Positions 52,494-64,000 of a DNA stretch of 64,000 nucleotides are shown here, in pieces. Source of the DNA: Lachnospira sp. (GTDB lineage Bacteria > Bacillota > Clostridia > Lachnospirales > Lachnospiraceae); the NCBI GenBank assembly GCA_017621205.1, contig JAGATQ010000016.1, positions 1 to 64,000 of the forward strand, in the 5' to 3' direction. The translations under genes were made by a program, and so were the position numbers. The notes beneath the pieces are model-generated. The model was not told where the DNA came from and did no database searches. It worked only from the letters and a program-made list of their open reading frames with translations. Positions within the stretch are counted from its first letter, which is position 1. The number at the start of each line of letters is the position of its first letter.

Positions 52494-53775
52494 TTAACAA
52501 GTAACACACCTTTCGGTGTAGTAATCTAACATTGAGACTAGTCCAAATGAGGTTAGTCTCTTTGTGCTTATAGCCTTTTGTACCCAACCGTTGTGAGCAA
52601 GCCGGGCATATCTGCCTCCATTGTAGGCTATTTTATATGCTGCCCATTGGGGTACATCCAGCTTCATTAAGTTCTTTGCCCTGTTCTGTCGCGTTTTCCA
52701 ATGTTTCCAAATACACATGCGTAGTCTGTATCTTATGTTACCCTCAAGCTCTTTGCAGAGTGTTTTCATACTTCCAATCTTGAAGTAGTTAATCCACCTC
52801 TGATAAGCTGATTAAGTTTCACTATCTTGTAGCTATTGCTGACGCCCCAGCTTCGACGTGTGCGTTCTTTCATTCTCTTCTTGAACTTCGCAACAGATTT
52901 TGCATGTGTTTTTGCCTTGTATTGGTGTACCTGCCTGTCAAAGTAGAATCCAAACCCCAGATTTTTTAACCCTTGTGGTTTATCTACTTTGCTCTTGGTT
53001 ATATTGACCTTGGCCCTAATTTCCCCTCAATGAATCGGGATATATTTCTCATTACCCGATTCGCAGACATTTTACTTCCCACCATGATAATACAGTCATC
53101 TGCATATCGTACAAAATTTAGCCCTCTCTTTTCCATTTCCTTATCAAGTTCATTCAGCATGATGTTTGCTAGCAATAGAGAGAGAGTACCACCTTGTGGT
53201 GTTCCCACAACAGAATCTTTGTACTCTTCATCTATCATAATTCCGCTAACTAAATACTTTCTTACAATAGAAATAACATCTCCGTCCTTAATCGTTCTTC
53301 CTATTAAAGTCATCAGTTTGTCATGGTTTACTGTGTCGAAGAACTTTTCCAAGTCAATGTCAACAATCCAATCATTACCATCATTCATTATATCTAGTGC
53401 TGTTAGGATTGCCTACTGTGCACATCTATTCGGTCTGAATCCATAGCTATGGTCATGGAACTGTTCCTCATAGATTGGTGTTAACACCTGTGCAATGGCT
53501 TGTTGTACAAATCTGTCTGTTACTGTTGGTACTCCCAGGTTTTTGACACCACCATGCGGCTTTGGTATCTCCACCCTTCGTACTGCTTGAGGTTTGTATT
53601 TTCTCTCCCTCAATTGTTCCTTAATGATTTCGCCGTTCTTTTTAAGATGTTCTTTAAGGTCTGTATACTTCATTCCATCCACCCCCTCCGCACCTTTGTT
53701 TCGTACAACTTGCAGATATGCTCTGTTGAGGTTTTCACCAGACAATATCTGCTCCATTAGACTACTTGTGTCCAT
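52494..53775 (-). pseudogene. ltrA: Group II intron reverse transcriptase/maturase, degraded
   Basis: The pieces join as one protein of ~425 residues: an N-terminal RT part (from 53775, MDTSSLMEQILSGENLN), an RT core with RYADDCIIM (52999-53388) and a maturase/thumb part (to 52494). Three lesions are visible: an in-frame TAG at 53413 where CAG CAG is expected (CAQ-stop-AIL), a one-base frameshift near 53005 (at LG/KVNITKSK), and another near 52793 (at RGW). A fragment upstream of 53775 reads on to 53811 but lacks a better site. The intron can no longer move on its own. Confidence 0.88.
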
Positions 53776-54268
53776 GCGTTCTTTCCTTTCCGCCCCGCTT
53801 GATTTGACCACCTTTTACCCGATTGATTACGGCAGATGTTGTCATTTCTGCAATACGAGACATACTCGAACTGATTGATTGTTCGCCCCTTTGCTCCATC
53901 TCCATTACAGAGACTTCTTCGCTACTATGGGCTCGGCAACTTCTCACAGTTCGTTGTTACTAGGTTAATGGAACCTCTGTGAGACCTCCACGCTTAACGT
54001 GCACGCTCTTTCCCTCCATATATCCGCCGCATTTACTCTGCTACTACAAATGTGGTAGTTATTAGACTTTTTTGCTTTTAGCCAACTTATCTCTCGCAGC
54101 CTAGCCTTATATACGATTTCTGTCCGTCAGACCAGAGGTTTGCTTACAGTTTCCTTCAGATTCCACCTCACGATGGACACCCTTGCTGTTCGGCTATACA
54201 TTTCCCACTACCTGGGCATGTTCGGGACTTGCACCCATTAGAGCGTGCCCATGGCGCGCGAACTAAAC

Positions 54269-54346: not shown

Positions 54347-54880
54347 CTACTGAATACATATTGAAAAATCATCATATATTCCGACTGGTACATCATCATC
54401 AAAATTATATTGTTCTACTGTATCTTTTTCAAACCCATAAACCATTATCATCTGTTTATCAGGATCAACAATCCAATACTCTCTAACACTTGCTGCACGA
54501 TATTTAAATAATTTTGCCATATAGTCTCTTGACTTGCTGCTTGGAGAAACAATCTCAATCACCCAATCAGGCGCACCATGGCATCCTTTTTCATCTAATT
54601 TAGAAAGGTCACAGATAACAGATATATCTGGCTCAATATAGTTTATATCATCTTTATTCAAAAATACTGCAAACGGAGCGGTATATATCTCACATTTTCC
54701 ATCTTTGCTGTCAATATAATTCGCTATTGTTTGATAAAGTCTCCCACTGATCCTTTGATGTGTTTTACTTGGCGGTGCCATATAGTAAATTTTGCCATCA
54801 ATCAGTTCAGCTCTTTCTCCATCTGGCAATGCATAAATATCAGCTATCGTATATACATCCTCTTTTCTTAATGCATCCAT
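54347..54880 (-). CDS. Uma2-family (DUF820) PD-(D/E)XK nuclease-like protein
   Basis: About 177 residues. It has the family start (YTIADIYALPDGERAELIDGKIYYM), the IEPDISVICD segment and VIEIVSPSSKSRDYMAK, which together carry the PD...ExK-type active-site residues. Uma2 proteins are common in cyanobacteria and in some clostridial accessory regions; their biological role is poorly known. The start at 54880 has GGAGG 10 bases upstream. No partner gene is evident. Confidence 0.85.
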   Translation of the reverse strand: MDALRKEDVYTIADIYALPDGERAELIDGKIYYMAPPSKTHQRISGRLYQTIANYIDSKDGKCEIYTAPFAVFLNKDDINYIEPDISVICDLSKLDEKGCHGAPDWVIEIVSPSSKSRDYMAKLFKYRAASVREYWIVDPDKQMIMVYGFEKDTVEQYNFDDDVPVGIYDDFSICIQ

Positions 54881-55249
54881 AATTCTTACACCTCCACTCT
54901 TAATATCATTATATCCCGCAGTCTCTGAAATTACAATCAAATTATTGAATATCTAATTATTGATAATATGTCATGATGTTCTCAGTTTAGGAAAATATAC
55001 TATCCTTTTCATTCCCTTGATATATCCAAGATTTAATGATATTTCTGTCCAGCCATTAAGATATTGAATAAGTATTTTTATTCATTCTGTTTCTGCTTTT
55101 GCTAATAATCCACGAAATTAATTTAAGATATTTTGTTTATAGTATATAATAGATAAAATCGTTGTCAATACTGATATAATTTTATAAATAATGCTCACAT
55201 ATTAATTTTGACAATAAAAATTCAAATTACCAAGGAGACAAATAAAACA

Positions 55250-59165: not shown

Positions 59166-59759
59166 TTAAACTTCGTCATTTAAGATATTTTTATATATTT
59201 TTTCATATTTTTGGCATATTTTCGTATAATCAACATAATCTTTTGATAATAAAAAAATAACAAAGAAACAAATTAGCATAAATATCATAATAATTGTGTC
59301 AATATATGAGAAACATATTAAATAACCATTTATAATCATGCGATTGTTAATATATGAAACTAAAGATATGAAAGAAATAATTCCAGAACCAGCCCCAACA
59401 AAAAACGATGCCAGTCTATGCACTCTATTTTCTTTCGTATAAAGAACTTTAAATTTTGAATCAACATCGCCTACTATCGTTTCCCAGCGCAATTTTTCAA
59501 AACATGGTTCTAAAAATAGCCTTATATATATTGAACAGCGTGCCATATGATATCTTCTTACATTAAGTAACCCCTGCATCGGAATAATGAATATAACAGT
59601 TAATATAAAAAAAATTGCATTATTTAATTCATATCCTAATCCAATAAGTGAAACACTTACTGTAAATATAGCAACAATTAAATTATCACACCTTTGCATT
59701 AATGTAAAAATCTCTTGTTTTATATTATTATATTCTAATTGCAATATTTCTTGTTCCAT
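59166..59759 (-). CDS. Four-helix membrane protein, SLATT-like
   Basis: 197 residues. An N-terminal amphipathic stretch is followed by two helices (about 27-45, 49-68), a cytoplasmic loop of ~45 residues with FLEPCFEKLRWET, two more helices (about 115-139, 148-172) and a basic C-terminal tail. The two-helix pairs with flanking cytoplasmic helices recall SLATT-type membrane proteins of bacterial defence loci, but no motif confirms it. It appears to stand alone between IS remnants. Confidence 0.6.
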   Translation of the reverse strand: MEQEILQLEYNNIKQEIFTLMQRCDNLIVAIFTVSVSLIGLGYELNNAIFFILTVIFIIPMQGLLNVRRYHMARCSIYIRLFLEPCFEKLRWETIVGDVDSKFKVLYTKENRVHRLASFFVGAGSGIISFISLVSYINNRMIINGYLICFSYIDTIIMIFMLICFFVIFLLSKDYVDYTKICQKYEKIYKNILNDEV

Positions 59760-60971: not shown

Positions 60972-61853
60972 CTATAATTTTTCAAGCGACATATCAACTT
61001 TATCAATAGTATGTGTACCATAATTATACCTAAGATAAAACCCCTTATAAATTTCATCACAATAATGTCGTACCAATCCACATCCTGCACTATGTGTAGC
61101 ATGAGAATAGTAAATTAAAAGAATACTTTCTCCAACAACACAACCAATACAATGCCATTTACGATTAGCAAGCCTTTCAGGTGAGTGCCTTTTAATACTA
61201 CCAGATAATATATGTGAATACTCATTGTAATTTAATTGAATAATATCAATAAATCCTTGTTCTGTTATAGACTTCCATTCTCCCGAATAATAATCATTCT
61301 CAGAATTAATAATTTCCAACTTACTATTAAAATCAATTATATCTCCTACTCTTATCCATCCACCAGAAGGTGACTGTTCAATCAATGTGCGAATACTTGA
61401 TAATACAGCAGATTTAAGGTTATCTTTATTAGTCCAAAACTTAACCGTTCGTCCATCTTCAACTTTATTTTGAAAATTTTTCAAGAGTTCTTTTCCTAAC
61501 TCAGAAGATTCTGATTTTTTTTCTGGAATATTCTGAGTATCATTATTAATAAAAGCAATAATTGGCTTACCAGTAAGTAAAGCATAATCAAATTCCATTT
61601 CTATATATCCAAGTTTCCTACCTTCATCATTTATTCCCAGAGAACCATAACGTCCAGCTAAAATAAGCAAGTAATAATCACAATCATCTATTACATGTTT
61701 AATAATTTCCCATTGTGCCTTATTTGATGCTGTGAAAAGTTCCATACCAGTTGGAATACAATTAGATTCAAGCAGTGCTTGTATCACTTCTTTTCTTTCC
61801 TCTATTAAATCCTCATATGTTGAACTTACAAACACCTGATATTTCTTTTGCAT
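60972..61853 (-). CDS. DUF4062 (TIR-like) protein with unknown C-terminal domain
   Basis: About 293 residues. Residues 3-115 match DUF4062: YQVFVSSTYEDLIEERKEV, GMELFTASNKAQWEIIK, YYLLILAGRYGSL, then GYIEMEFDYA. This fold is related to TIR and nucleoside-deoxyribosyltransferase-like domains and occurs in signalling and defence proteins. The C-terminal ~100 residues (from SGEWKSI to the end) form a separate beta-rich domain with CIGCVVGESILLIYYSHATHSAGC, which I do not recognise. The start at 61853 has AGGGGG 8 bases upstream; the ATG at 61889 overlaps the previous gene. Third and last gene of the cluster. Confidence 0.78.
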   Translation of the reverse strand: MQKKYQVFVSSTYEDLIEERKEVIQALLESNCIPTGMELFTASNKAQWEIIKHVIDDCDYYLLILAGRYGSLGINDEGRKLGYIEMEFDYALLTGKPIIAFINNDTQNIPEKKSESSELGKELLKNFQNKVEDGRTVKFWTNKDNLKSAVLSSIRTLIEQSPSGGWIRVGDIIDFNSKLEIINSENDYYSGEWKSITEQGFIDIIQLNYNEYSHILSGSIKRHSPERLANRKWHCIGCVVGESILLIYYSHATHSAGCGLVRHYCDEIYKGFYLRYNYGTHTIDKVDMSLEKL

Positions 61854-61878
61854 TTCAGACACCCCCTCATTCGTTATT

Positions 61879-62565
61879 TCATTCGCCATATTTTAACTCA
61901 TATCTGATATAATCATTAACAACATGCTTAAAATCATCTATAGTAAAATCATTGAATAGTTTGGGAGAAAAGAAAATTCTTGCCATCGCAATTTGTGGAA
62001 GCAGAAAACCACTTAAAACATTTGCATTACCTGTTCTAATTAAAATATCAACTGGATAAGGAATTTCTAAATAATTGACGAATGATTCACCTGTTTTGTT
62101 AGCCTTATCTACAGCTATTTCTATTTCATTAAAAGAACTATAATTAAAGCAAAAATAAACTGTTTTTTTACCATTTGCTGTCTTTGATTCTATTATTGTG
62201 ATATATTTCAAAAATGGCTTTATATTAATATCATCTGCACTAACTATCTTAATTTTAATGTCATTTTCTATTGCATATGGTAAAAATATATTATTTAAAA
62301 ACTCCCATTCGGCAGTACAGAAATCATTTACCTCCTTGTCACTGCGTTTAAAATTTAAGGTACTTGCTAAATACACACTAAAATATTTCGTCCCTTGAGC
62401 AAAACTATAATCTATCATTTTAACAATACTGCACATAGAAACATAATAAGCTTCCAAATTAGTTTTATTATTCTTTTTTGCCCATCTTCTACCACCATCT
62501 GGAATTAGCGCAATATGTTCAGGAAAGCTCTTTACATTAGGATGGAAATTATTATTATTGTACAT
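61879..62565 (-). CDS. Divergent cis-prenyltransferase (undecaprenyl diphosphate synthase-like)
   Basis: 228 residues of the cis-IPPS fold, which extends allylic diphosphates with isopentenyl diphosphate. The first motif FPEHIALIPDGGRRWAKK keeps the catalytic Asp. A middle YLASTLNFKRSDKEV replaces the usual SxENWxRPxxEV, and ILIRTGNANVLSGFLLPQIA replaces IRTGG..RLSNFLLWQxAY. The Glu normally in AELYF that binds Mg is missing (ARIFF). It is therefore a paralogue, not the housekeeping UppS, and may be altered in activity. It follows the GT2 gene by 43 bases, with AAGGAG 5 bases from ATG. Confidence 0.82.
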   Translation of the reverse strand: MYNNNNFHPNVKSFPEHIALIPDGGRRWAKKNNKTNLEAYYVSMCSIVKMIDYSFAQGTKYFSVYLASTLNFKRSDKEVNDFCTAEWEFLNNIFLPYAIENDIKIKIVSADDINIKPFLKYITIIESKTANGKKTVYFCFNYSSFNEIEIAVDKANKTGESFVNYLEIPYPVDILIRTGNANVLSGFLLPQIAMARIFFSPKLFNDFTIDDFKHVVNDYIRYELKYGE

Positions 62566-62608
62566 AAATACTCCTTATCACTTTAACAATTTCAAAAATT
62601 AAAATATC

Positions 62609-63466
62609 TTAATTTAATGTCTTATAATTACATAAATAATAATTATTTACTTCATCTATAGAAGCTTGAAAAATATAGCTATTATATGCATTAATATAAA
62701 ATGCATAAAAATGAATATCACTTAAGATAATATCTATATCTTGATTCGTAAGTATCTTTTCTAAAAGCGTATTAAGTTTTTCATGTAAATCGTTTAACTT
62801 AAAATAAATATTATTAAGTTCAATTGCCGATGTTAGTAATGCATTCACCTCATTTGTACGTGTGCCAAGAAAACTATTATAATAATAGATAGCATTAGTA
62901 GAAATATTAAAAATAGGAATATCCATCAGAATGGAATAATTAACTAATCGATATACAATAGAATATCCTTTCGACATCAATAGATAATCGATGAGATCTT
63001 TTGACACTTTAAATGCTTTATATCCACATGCAACATCTGGTAAAAACCGACTTGAAACTTGTTTATATACAGCAGAAGCGAACGCATTTGCTATTGTTTT
63101 GCATGTAGGAATTGATATTGTTGAATCAAAACGATTCCCAAATACAATATCATAATCTTTTAGTGCATTAAGAAATTTATCTATATCATCAGGATTATGC
63201 TGACCATCTGCATCCATTAATAATACATATTTATAATCATTTTCTAGAGCATATTTAAGTCCCTCAAGAATGGCTTGAGACACGCCACAATTATAGGGCA
63301 TATTAATAACTCTAAAATTTTCTTGTTTAATTATTTCTAGTGTATTATCAGAACTACCATCATTTATCAACAAACAATTCCGTTTATATTTTTTCATCCG
63401 AAAAAGAACTGATTTAATCTGATTTGACACATTATATGCTGGAACAATAATTAAGGTCTCTTCCAT
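62609..63466 (-). CDS. GT2 glycosyltransferase, polyprenol-phosphate type without membrane tail
   Basis: 285 residues. A GT-A fold of the DPM1/GtrB-like family: ETLIIVPAYNVSNQI at the start, LLINDGSSDNTLEI near 32, the DxD-type LLMDADGQHNPDDI near 80-93 and VFGNRFD near 108. Such enzymes move a sugar from a nucleotide to polyprenyl phosphate. The C-terminal ~60 residues are helical but not membrane-spanning, unlike GtrB. First gene of a cluster with a cis-prenyltransferase, so lipid carrier and sugar transfer are encoded together. The site AAAGG precedes ATG 63466. Confidence 0.85.
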   Translation of the reverse strand: MEETLIIVPAYNVSNQIKSVLFRMKKYKRNCLLINDGSSDNTLEIIKQENFRVINMPYNCGVSQAILEGLKYALENDYKYVLLMDADGQHNPDDIDKFLNALKDYDIVFGNRFDSTISIPTCKTIANAFASAVYKQVSSRFLPDVACGYKAFKVSKDLIDYLLMSKGYSIVYRLVNYSILMDIPIFNISTNAIYYYNSFLGTRTNEVNALLTSAIELNNIYFKLNDLHEKLNTLLEKILTNQDIDIILSDIHFYAFYINAYNSYIFQASIDEVNNYYLCNYKTLN

Positions 63467-63557
63467 ATCGCTACCTTTCTAATATCTACTACCTACATCT
63501 TATAATAAACACTATAATAAATGAACTTCTCAAAATATTATTTTTATTTTCTGATTA

Positions 63558-63593
63558 ATTGTATCACATTATAGAATATTTTGTCTACAAAAT
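63558..63593 (-). promoter_or_regulatory. Promoter and palindromic operator of the GT2-prenyltransferase-DUF4062 cluster
   Basis: Minus strand TAGACA (plus 63582-63587), 18-bp spacer, TACAAT (plus 63558-63563). The -35 lies in a perfect palindrome ATTTTGT-CT-ACAAAAT (plus 63578-63593), extended by AATATT-like arms. A repressor site is likely; no regulator gene is adjacent in the window. Confidence 0.5.
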
Positions 63594-64000
63594 AATATTT
63601 TTAACTTATATTTAATAATAGATTATTCCTATTATTCTTTATATAAGTAATTCTCATTTTACCAATATTGTACAACAGATAATCAATTACTATCTGATTG
63701 ATAGATTATTGTGCTCCCACTATATCAAATTTCTCATCCTCATTAGCTACTCTTAATAACTACTAACTGTGAAAGAAGGTAAGCACTTGGCTCAAAAAAT
63801 CAACCTTACAAAAGATAAAACCTATTGTACAAGACTTTCGGGAACACTTTGACCTAATTTTGCTACAGGGGTATCAGCCTCCAAAGTGAGCTTCGAAAGA
63901 CGTTTTATAATGATTATAAGAAGGCTGTCGTACATGATTATATTGTACATACGGAAATCCTTCAATGGATAAATACAAGCTCATCGTCATTATAATAATA
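63594..64000. other. Right-edge region without a recognised gene
   Basis: AT-rich to about 63770, then of more coding-like composition. On the plus strand short interrupted frames can be read at 63790-64000 (for example PIVQDFREHFDLILLQGYQP), with stops. It may be a gene or transposase remnant; no family is recognised. Confidence 0.3.

What the first reader, a model, noticed from the sequence alone, without database searches (positions are those of the whole stretch)
60972..63593. Three-gene module: glycosyltransferase, divergent cis-prenyltransferase and DUF4062 protein
The genes are on one strand, 43 bases apart and then overlapping or nearly so, behind a single promoter with a palindromic operator, in an AT-rich accessory region between mobile-element debris. 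A lipid-carrier-type synthase with a polyprenol-phosphate-type sugar transferase would make a glycosylated prenyl compound. Adding a TIR-related DUF4062 protein with an unknown C-terminal domain suggests sensing or an effector step. I know of no described system with this trio. A role in phage defence or surface modification is inference.
Basis: partly seen in the sequence, partly recalled or inferred. Interest (0 to 1): 0.75.

Follow-up and report, generated by a model that had tools for sequence, protein, structure and literature searches.

The report
Three-gene NADase module with prenyl enzymes
Three adjacent genes encode a relative of sugar-transfer enzymes, an altered relative of the enzyme that builds prenyl lipid carriers, and a TIR-like protein from a family with a member reported to stop phage by destroying NAD+, whose tail is predicted to be a small ligand-binding barrel; together they would likely form a defence switch controlled by a prenyl-sugar molecule.

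Summary
The three genes are real: GT2 (62609-63466), divergent cis-prenyltransferase (61879-62565), DUF4062 protein (60972-61853), all on the minus strand. The set recurs: of 28 DUF4062 clusters with the same C-terminal domain, 12 share their exact longest-contig length with a relative of this prenyltransferase, against 2 of 92 other listed DUF4062 clusters. In the genomes sampled only the own genome had it.

DUF4062 is no longer of unknown function. A May 2026 preprint (PMC13174449) reports a TIR-like NADase giving abortive phage defence (Swarozyc, KpSwz). The window protein matches KpSwz over residues 13-185 (E 1e-40) and keeps the catalytic Glu. Its sensor half differs: a predicted eight-stranded avidin/calycin-like barrel with no Pfam match, where KpSwz has a winged-helix portal binder. 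The prenyltransferase family has an altered active site (E. coli UppS N28 to G, R200 to V/T/L, E213 to R). A related GT2-prenyltransferase pair occurs without DUF4062 in Bacteroidetes polysaccharide loci (15 of 20).

Best reading: a Swarozyc-like NADase with a new sensor, gated by a prenyl or prenyl-sugar ligand made by the two enzymes. Ligand, sign, NADase activity and defence are untested. New variant of a known kind.

The parts
62609..63466 (-). GT2 glycosyltransferase, 285 aa, first gene of the trio; PF00535, polyprenyl-phosphate-transferase-like (GtrB/DPMS/ArnC) catalytic domain without a predicted membrane segment
61879..62565 (-). Divergent cis-prenyltransferase, 228 aa; UppS fold family with altered active site (N28 to G25, H43 to Y40, E198 to A181, R200 to V183, E213 to R196 in E. 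coli UppS numbering)
   Evidence: PF01255 114.7 bits; below the TIGR00055 uppS cut-off (100.9 against 109.55 bits); profile match to 3ugs E 2.5e-45; residue table; separate UppS-like gene at G000:C23
60972..61853 (-). DUF4062 (TIR-like) protein, 293 aa from the conserved start; the ORF extends to an upstream ATG at 61889
   Evidence: PF13271 89.1 bits; KpSwz 10wc_A E 1e-40 over residues 13-185 of the 305-aa ORF
61599..61601 (-). Codon of the predicted catalytic Glu (E85 of 293 aa), aligned with the KpSwz residue taken to be E97
   Evidence: alignments; E85 invariant in 29 of 29 in A4
60975..61295 (-). C-terminal predicted eight-stranded avidin/calycin-like barrel (residues 187-293), no Pfam match
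63532..63601 (.). 13-nt perfect inverted repeat arms (63532-63544, 63589-63601) around a promoter-like site (-35 from 63587, -10 ending 63558, minus strand); possible operator
   Evidence: 0 of 500 shuffles for the inverted repeat; promoter matches in the region are not above shuffles

Best explanation
The locus encodes a TIR-like DUF4062 protein of the family whose KpSwz member is reported to destroy NAD+ during phage infection, joined to a predicted ligand-binding-type barrel, and it likely works as an abortive-infection switch whose ligand would be a prenyl or prenyl-sugar phosphate made by the neighbouring cis-prenyltransferase and GT2 enzymes. Predicted: the avidin/calycin-like barrel and the polyprenyl-phosphate-transferase-like fold of the GT2. 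Inferred: (1) the prenyltransferase and the GT2 act in one short pathway that makes a dedicated amphipathic molecule; (2) the barrel binds it; (3) binding or loss of the ligand on phage attack moves the TIR-like domains from an inactive to an active arrangement, as portal binding is proposed to do in KpSwz; (4) NAD+ is hydrolysed and the infected cell stops. I lean to the ligand holding the NADase off in healthy cells, because the two enzyme genes precede the effector gene in the operon, but the sign is not determined.
Confidence: 0.4

Rival explanations
1. Metabolic mini-cluster: the DUF4062 domain acts as a nucleotide N-glycosidase or deoxyribosyltransferase-type enzyme, and with the prenyltransferase and GT2 makes a small prenylated, glycosylated metabolite; the barrel is a binding part of the pathway. 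No immunity function.
For: Top VIA-align matches of the TIR-like half are DNPH1 and MilB, nucleotide N-hydrolases. Both partner genes look biosynthetic. No complete known defence system adjoins.
Against: The sequence match is to KpSwz, E 1e-40, with the catalytic Glu conserved, and that protein is reported as a NADase in defence. No transporter, resistance gene or further tailoring enzyme lies in the trio.
Confidence: 0.2
2. Surface modification plus back-up: the prenyltransferase and GT2 feed a surface glycan that alters phage adsorption, and the DUF4062 NADase is a separate second layer carried on the same operon.
For: Distant relatives of the pair lie in polysaccharide clusters in Bacteroidetes, with GT4-type genes, an acyltransferase and a multi-segment membrane protein.
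Against: The trio has no flippase, polymerase or further glycosyltransferase, and its GT2 has no predicted membrane segment. The DUF4062 sensor half is a predicted ligand-type barrel that itself tracks with the pair.
Confidence: 0.15
3. Reversed logic: phage infection switches on the prenyltransferase and GT2, or one of them senses the phage, and their product is a second messenger that activates the barrel-NADase, as in CBASS or Thoeris signalling.
For: Enzyme plus ligand-binding effector is the layout of signalling defence systems (recalled). All three proteins lack predicted membrane segments.
Against: Pfam shows only the catalytic domain in either enzyme, so no phage-sensing domain is visible. 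Prenyl phosphates as infection signals are not known to me (recalled).
Confidence: 0.15
4. The prenyltransferase relative is catalytically dead and serves as a lipid-phosphate sensor or a structural partner of the DUF4062 protein.
For: E213 (recalled as a metal ligand in E. coli UppS) is Arg in 25 of 25 of A1 and 20 of 20 Bacteroidetes loci, and R200 is V, T or L in all of them.
Against: The other active-site residues listed are invariant in the same sequences, and the UppS N28 position is one where an active irregular prenyl synthase also differs (PMC7839719 passages).
Confidence: 0.15

Closest known systems
Swarozyc / KpSwz (DUF4062 TIR-like NADase; PMC13174449, PDB 10wc, 11cq, 11cv)
   Same: Same TIR-like domain over about 170 residues (E 1e-40), catalytic Glu aligned, a C-terminal auxiliary half after a linker
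   Different: Auxiliary half is a predicted avidin/calycin-like barrel instead of the winged-helix portal-binding domain; two biosynthetic-type genes precede it in the operon
Undecaprenyl diphosphate synthase (UppS) and irregular UppS-fold prenyl synthases (cyclolavandulyl diphosphate synthase) or MM_0014-type cis-prenyltransferases
   Same: PF01255 family, the D26 equivalent and most active-site residues checked; all are matched by the A1 profile
   Different: N28 to G, H43 to Y, R200 to V/T/L, E213 to R; below the uppS equivalog cut-off; a separate UppS-like gene is present in the genome
Polyprenyl-phosphate glycosyltransferases (GtrB, DPMS, ArnC) and soluble GpgS
   Different: No predicted transmembrane segment, unlike GtrB/DPMS/ArnC (their anchors recalled); acceptor unknown
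Avidins / calycin-like barrels
   Different: 10-13% identity, fused to a TIR-like domain; ligand unknown
GT2-prenyltransferase pair in Bacteroidetes polysaccharide loci
   Same: Related pair (prenyltransferase 31-42% identity, GT2 26-31%)
   Different: No DUF4062; embedded with other glycan genes

Membership tests
Swarozyc (DUF4062 NADase defence) | DUF4062 TIR-like domain | tested here: met
   PF13271 89.1 bits against cut-off 24.7; KpSwz E 1e-40
Swarozyc (DUF4062 NADase defence) | Conserved catalytic Glu (E97 of KpSwz) | tested here: met
   Glu aligned; invariant in 29 of 29. The aligned Glu of 10wc_A (chain position 82 by my count) is taken as E97 from the construct start given in the paper
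Swarozyc (DUF4062 NADase defence) | Winged-helix auxiliary domain that binds the phage portal | tested here: not met
   By prediction: the match to KpSwz ends at residue 185 and the tail is modelled all-beta
Swarozyc (DUF4062 NADase defence) | NAD+ hydrolysis and abortive infection | not testable with these tools
   needs biochemistry and phage assays
UppS (undecaprenyl diphosphate synthase) | Score above the TIGR00055 uppS equivalog cut-off | tested here: not met
   100.9 against 109.55 bits
UppS (undecaprenyl diphosphate synthase) | Canonical active-site residues incl. R200 and E213 | tested here: not met
   V183 and R196 in the window protein; R200 and E213 changed in 25 of 25 of A1
cis-prenyltransferase superfamily | PF01255 profile | tested here: met
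   114.7 bits against 27; the A1 profile matches 35 distinct PDB sequences at E up to 0.001
Irregular (head-to-middle) prenyl synthase | Residue other than Asn at the UppS N28 position together with a shown irregular product | tested here: inconclusive
   Gly at that position in 25 of 25 (G25 invariant); product unknown
Polyprenyl-phosphate GT2 (GtrB/DPMS) | GT2 fold with Asp motifs | tested here: met
Polyprenyl-phosphate GT2 (GtrB/DPMS) | Membrane anchor | tested here: not met
   no hydrophobic segment at mean hydropathy 1.6 over 19 residues
Avidin/calycin-like barrel | Eight-stranded antiparallel barrel | tested here: met
   predicted model only
Avidin/calycin-like barrel | Small-ligand binding | not testable with these tools
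   no ligand assay
Known defence systems in PADLOC-DB 2.0.0 | Match of the trio to a model | tested here: not met
   0 families for each of the three proteins at E 0.1; this 2023 library predates Swarozyc

The most novel reading that the evidence does not exclude
A bacterial immune NADase gated by a dedicated prenyl-sugar phosphate: the operon makes its own amphipathic guard molecule with an altered cis-prenyltransferase and a soluble GT2, reads it in an avidin-like barrel fused to a TIR-like domain, and kills the cell by NAD+ loss when phage attack disturbs that molecule.
Probability: 0.25. Interest if true: 0.88.

Novelty: new variant of a known kind. Interest (0 to 1): 0.62.

Why it matters
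It would add an isoprenoid-derived ligand to the small set of chemistries that control TIR-type cell death, link isoprenoid metabolism to phage defence, and show how the DUF4062 family (also in human TEP1, by the preprint) swaps sensors. The trio is small and all three proteins lack predicted membrane segments, so it is directly testable: mass spectrometry of the barrel's ligand and an NADase assay would settle the central claim.

Tried and rejected
Trio confined to this strain: rejected, because protein searches show relatives of all three on shared contig lengths. Genome sampling found this prenyltransferase only in the own genome: family 1 of 200 and 1 of 397, order 1 of 392, class 1 of 391, phylum 1 of 348 (the samples overlap). 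In the genus, 3 of 5 genomes matched at E 1e-35 or better, but the two others, and a second own match, are at 5e-37 to 2e-36, far below the 1.5e-103 of the window gene. The genome-contig scan, which is limited to two peptide patterns and may leave out records near the window, gave 20 loci, all titled Bacteroidetes, Bacteroidia, Bacteroidales or Lentimicrobium, at 31-42% identity.

Phage or plasmid origin: no relative of the prenyltransferase in viral contigs. In phages (18 records, all listed) and plasmids (20 of 82 records listed) identities are 24.5-33.2%; where a feature is annotated it is an isoprenyl transferase, uppS or a hypothetical protein. DUF4062 is common in viral contigs (74 loci), but neither the barrel nor the prenyltransferase profile hit any ORF of these loci. 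In the viral structure library the four matches at E 0.001 or better do not look like the barrel by name or length; two proteins of 100-108 aa at E 2.4e-3 and 1.6e-2 (TM by target 0.68 and 0.64) were not followed.

Canonical UppS: rejected as a label, although the C. jejuni UppS 3ugs has the E198-to-Ala and H43-to-Tyr changes (alignment), so those two alone mean little. Defence island: not supported here. Of 28 non-trio ORFs of 110 aa or more listed for contig 50.4-86 kb, I scanned 17 and left out 11; they gave single PADLOC hits such as WYL, reverse transcriptase and PDC-S03, and no complete system that I could see (25 of 49 families shown). Empty site: ychF is found in the four same-genus genomes, and in one of them (G200) genes of contig 85.7-93 kb lie about 11 kb from ychF instead of about 35 kb, so the region is variable, but no exact empty site was read. 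The WYL gene on the right gave no match at E 1e-40 in those four genomes.

Literature: searches for antiphage defence with prenyltransferase, undecaprenyl or TIR terms gave nothing; with lipocalin they gave one general review (listing only). 'DUF4062' gave nine papers, one of them on its function by title and abstract. The spelling 'Swarozyc' alone gave none. PMC13174449: parts 1 and 2 of 6 of the text, the discussion and the figure legends were read, and a term search of the main text found no 'prenyl' or 'glycosyltransferase'; its supplementary Figure S1 on operons was not seen, so this operon type may be in it. PMC7839719 and PMC4790310: passages only; the second had nothing on these residues. 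No paper text was found for the roles of E213 and R200; they are recalled.

Full report
What is there. On the minus strand at 60972-63466 lie, in transcription order, a GT2 glycosyltransferase (62609-63466), a cis-prenyltransferase relative (61879-62565) and a DUF4062 protein (60972-61853, or 61889 with an upstream ATG). The gaps are 43 and 25 nt, each gene has a ribosome-binding-type sequence (by eye), and the 2-kb steps there are 27-29% GC against 37-47% up to 54 kb. Transposases lie to the left. Compared with one same-genus genome, the stretch from the ychF gene to about 85.7 kb of the contig is variable. A promoter-like site precedes the GT2 gene but such sites are not above shuffles in the region; a 13-nt inverted repeat around it is (0 of 500), while the shorter palindrome is not (69 of 500).

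Is the trio a unit? The protein database gives no DNA, but it lists the longest contig of each cluster. Of the 28 DUF4062 clusters that carry the same C-terminal domain (P0001-P0028), 12 have a longest contig of exactly the same length as one of the 41 closest prenyltransferase clusters (P0121-P0161). Of the 92 other listed DUF4062 clusters, 2 do, and one of these is on a contig length that also has the barrel type. Four lengths (6312, 25451, 32482, 73292) are shared by all three families (11 GT clusters, P0196-P0206) (lists). I left 34 weaker prenyltransferase clusters (P0162-P0195) and 109 weaker listed GT clusters out of the count; the DUF4062 list shows 120 of 2377 hits and the GT list 120 of 1053. 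P0030, a 42% relative that also seems to have the barrel, was counted on the control side. By identity, 9 of the 22 prenyltransferase clusters at 55% or more (P0121-P0142) and 3 of the 19 at 45-52% (P0143-P0161) share a length with a barrel-type DUF4062. On one contig of only 2130 bases the DUF4062 and prenyltransferase proteins would take up 1.6 kb, so they must be neighbours if the equal length means the same contig. In the own genome's clusters, the DUF4062 contig (150901) and the longest contig of the other two (357144) differ, so the third gene on that second contig is not shown.

Prenyltransferase. The family keeps the equivalents of E. coli UppS D26, R30, S71, N74, R77, E81, R194 and S202 in 25 of 25 aligned sequences, but has Y at H43, A at E198, V/T/L at R200 and R at E213 in all 25, and G at N28 in all 25. 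In the 20 Bacteroidetes loci the R200 and E213 changes are also universal. That E213 binds metal and R200 phosphate is recalled. A review passage says that the N28 position is where lavandulyl synthase carries the His needed for head-to-middle joining. C. jejuni UppS (3ugs) already has the Ala and Tyr changes, so the distinctive ones are R200 and E213, with N28. I read this as an enzyme with a changed second-substrate site; a dead enzyme is a live rival. The genome has another UppS-like gene at C23 with the canonical residues.

Distant relatives. Among 20 Bacteroidetes loci, 15 hold the GT2 (E below 1e-20) upstream of the prenyltransferase: in five of them within 71 nt or overlapping, in ten separated by 1.0 to 3.3 kb; three of the five misses have only about 3 kb of sequence upstream. 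No DUF4062 was found in them at E 1e-3. Neighbours, from representatives scanned, are GT4-type transferases, a second GT2, an acyltransferase and a protein with eight hydrophobic segments and no Pfam match. So the pair also exists apart from DUF4062 and belongs to glycan chemistry there.

Mechanism. I put these together as a NADase switch with a prenyl-sugar ligand (confidence 0.4; each inferred step is marked in the statement). What the trio lacks (flippase, polymerase, anchors) speaks against a surface polymer. Results against: no complete defence system seen nearby, the N-hydrolase-like fold ranks of the TIR-like half, indirect linkage data, weak plain Foldseek scores for the barrel, and many prenyltransferase clusters without a matched DUF4062. 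Nothing was found in print on this trio with the searches named, but the preprint's supplement was not seen.

Noticed in passing
window 59166-59759 (-): 197-aa ORF with four hydrophobic segments in two hairpins and no Pfam match at E 0.2 or better, no PADLOC and no PHROG match, 1.2 kb downstream of the DUF4062 gene on the same strand; may be a membrane effector or unrelated.
   Followed up: partly
viral contig loci L029-L102: 74 viral-collection contigs encode DUF4062 proteins, none with the barrel by profile search; DUF4062 genes seem frequent on phage or prophage contigs.
   Followed up: partly
proteins P0036, P0046, P0047, P0053, P0064: DUF4062 proteins listed with PF04472 (recalled as SepF, a division-protein family); an odd fusion not looked into.
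   Followed up: no
loci L003-L022: A recurrent Bacteroidetes polysaccharide cluster with a GT2-prenyltransferase pair and a membrane protein (cluster 3, 13 loci) with no Pfam match in the representative scanned.
   Followed up: partly
window 54347-54940 (-): Uma2-family protein (PF05685) in the same accessory region, next to reverse-transcriptase-like fragments (52999-53811, by eye; one RT hit among scanned ORFs).
   Followed up: no
proteins P0016 and P0017: Two barrel-type DUF4062 proteins carry an extra C-terminal region of about 100 residues; both are listed with PF06949.
   Followed up: no
contig length 10055: Two DUF4062 clusters, P0021 with the barrel and P0101 without, have the same longest-contig length, so one locus may hold two DUF4062 genes.
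   Followed up: no
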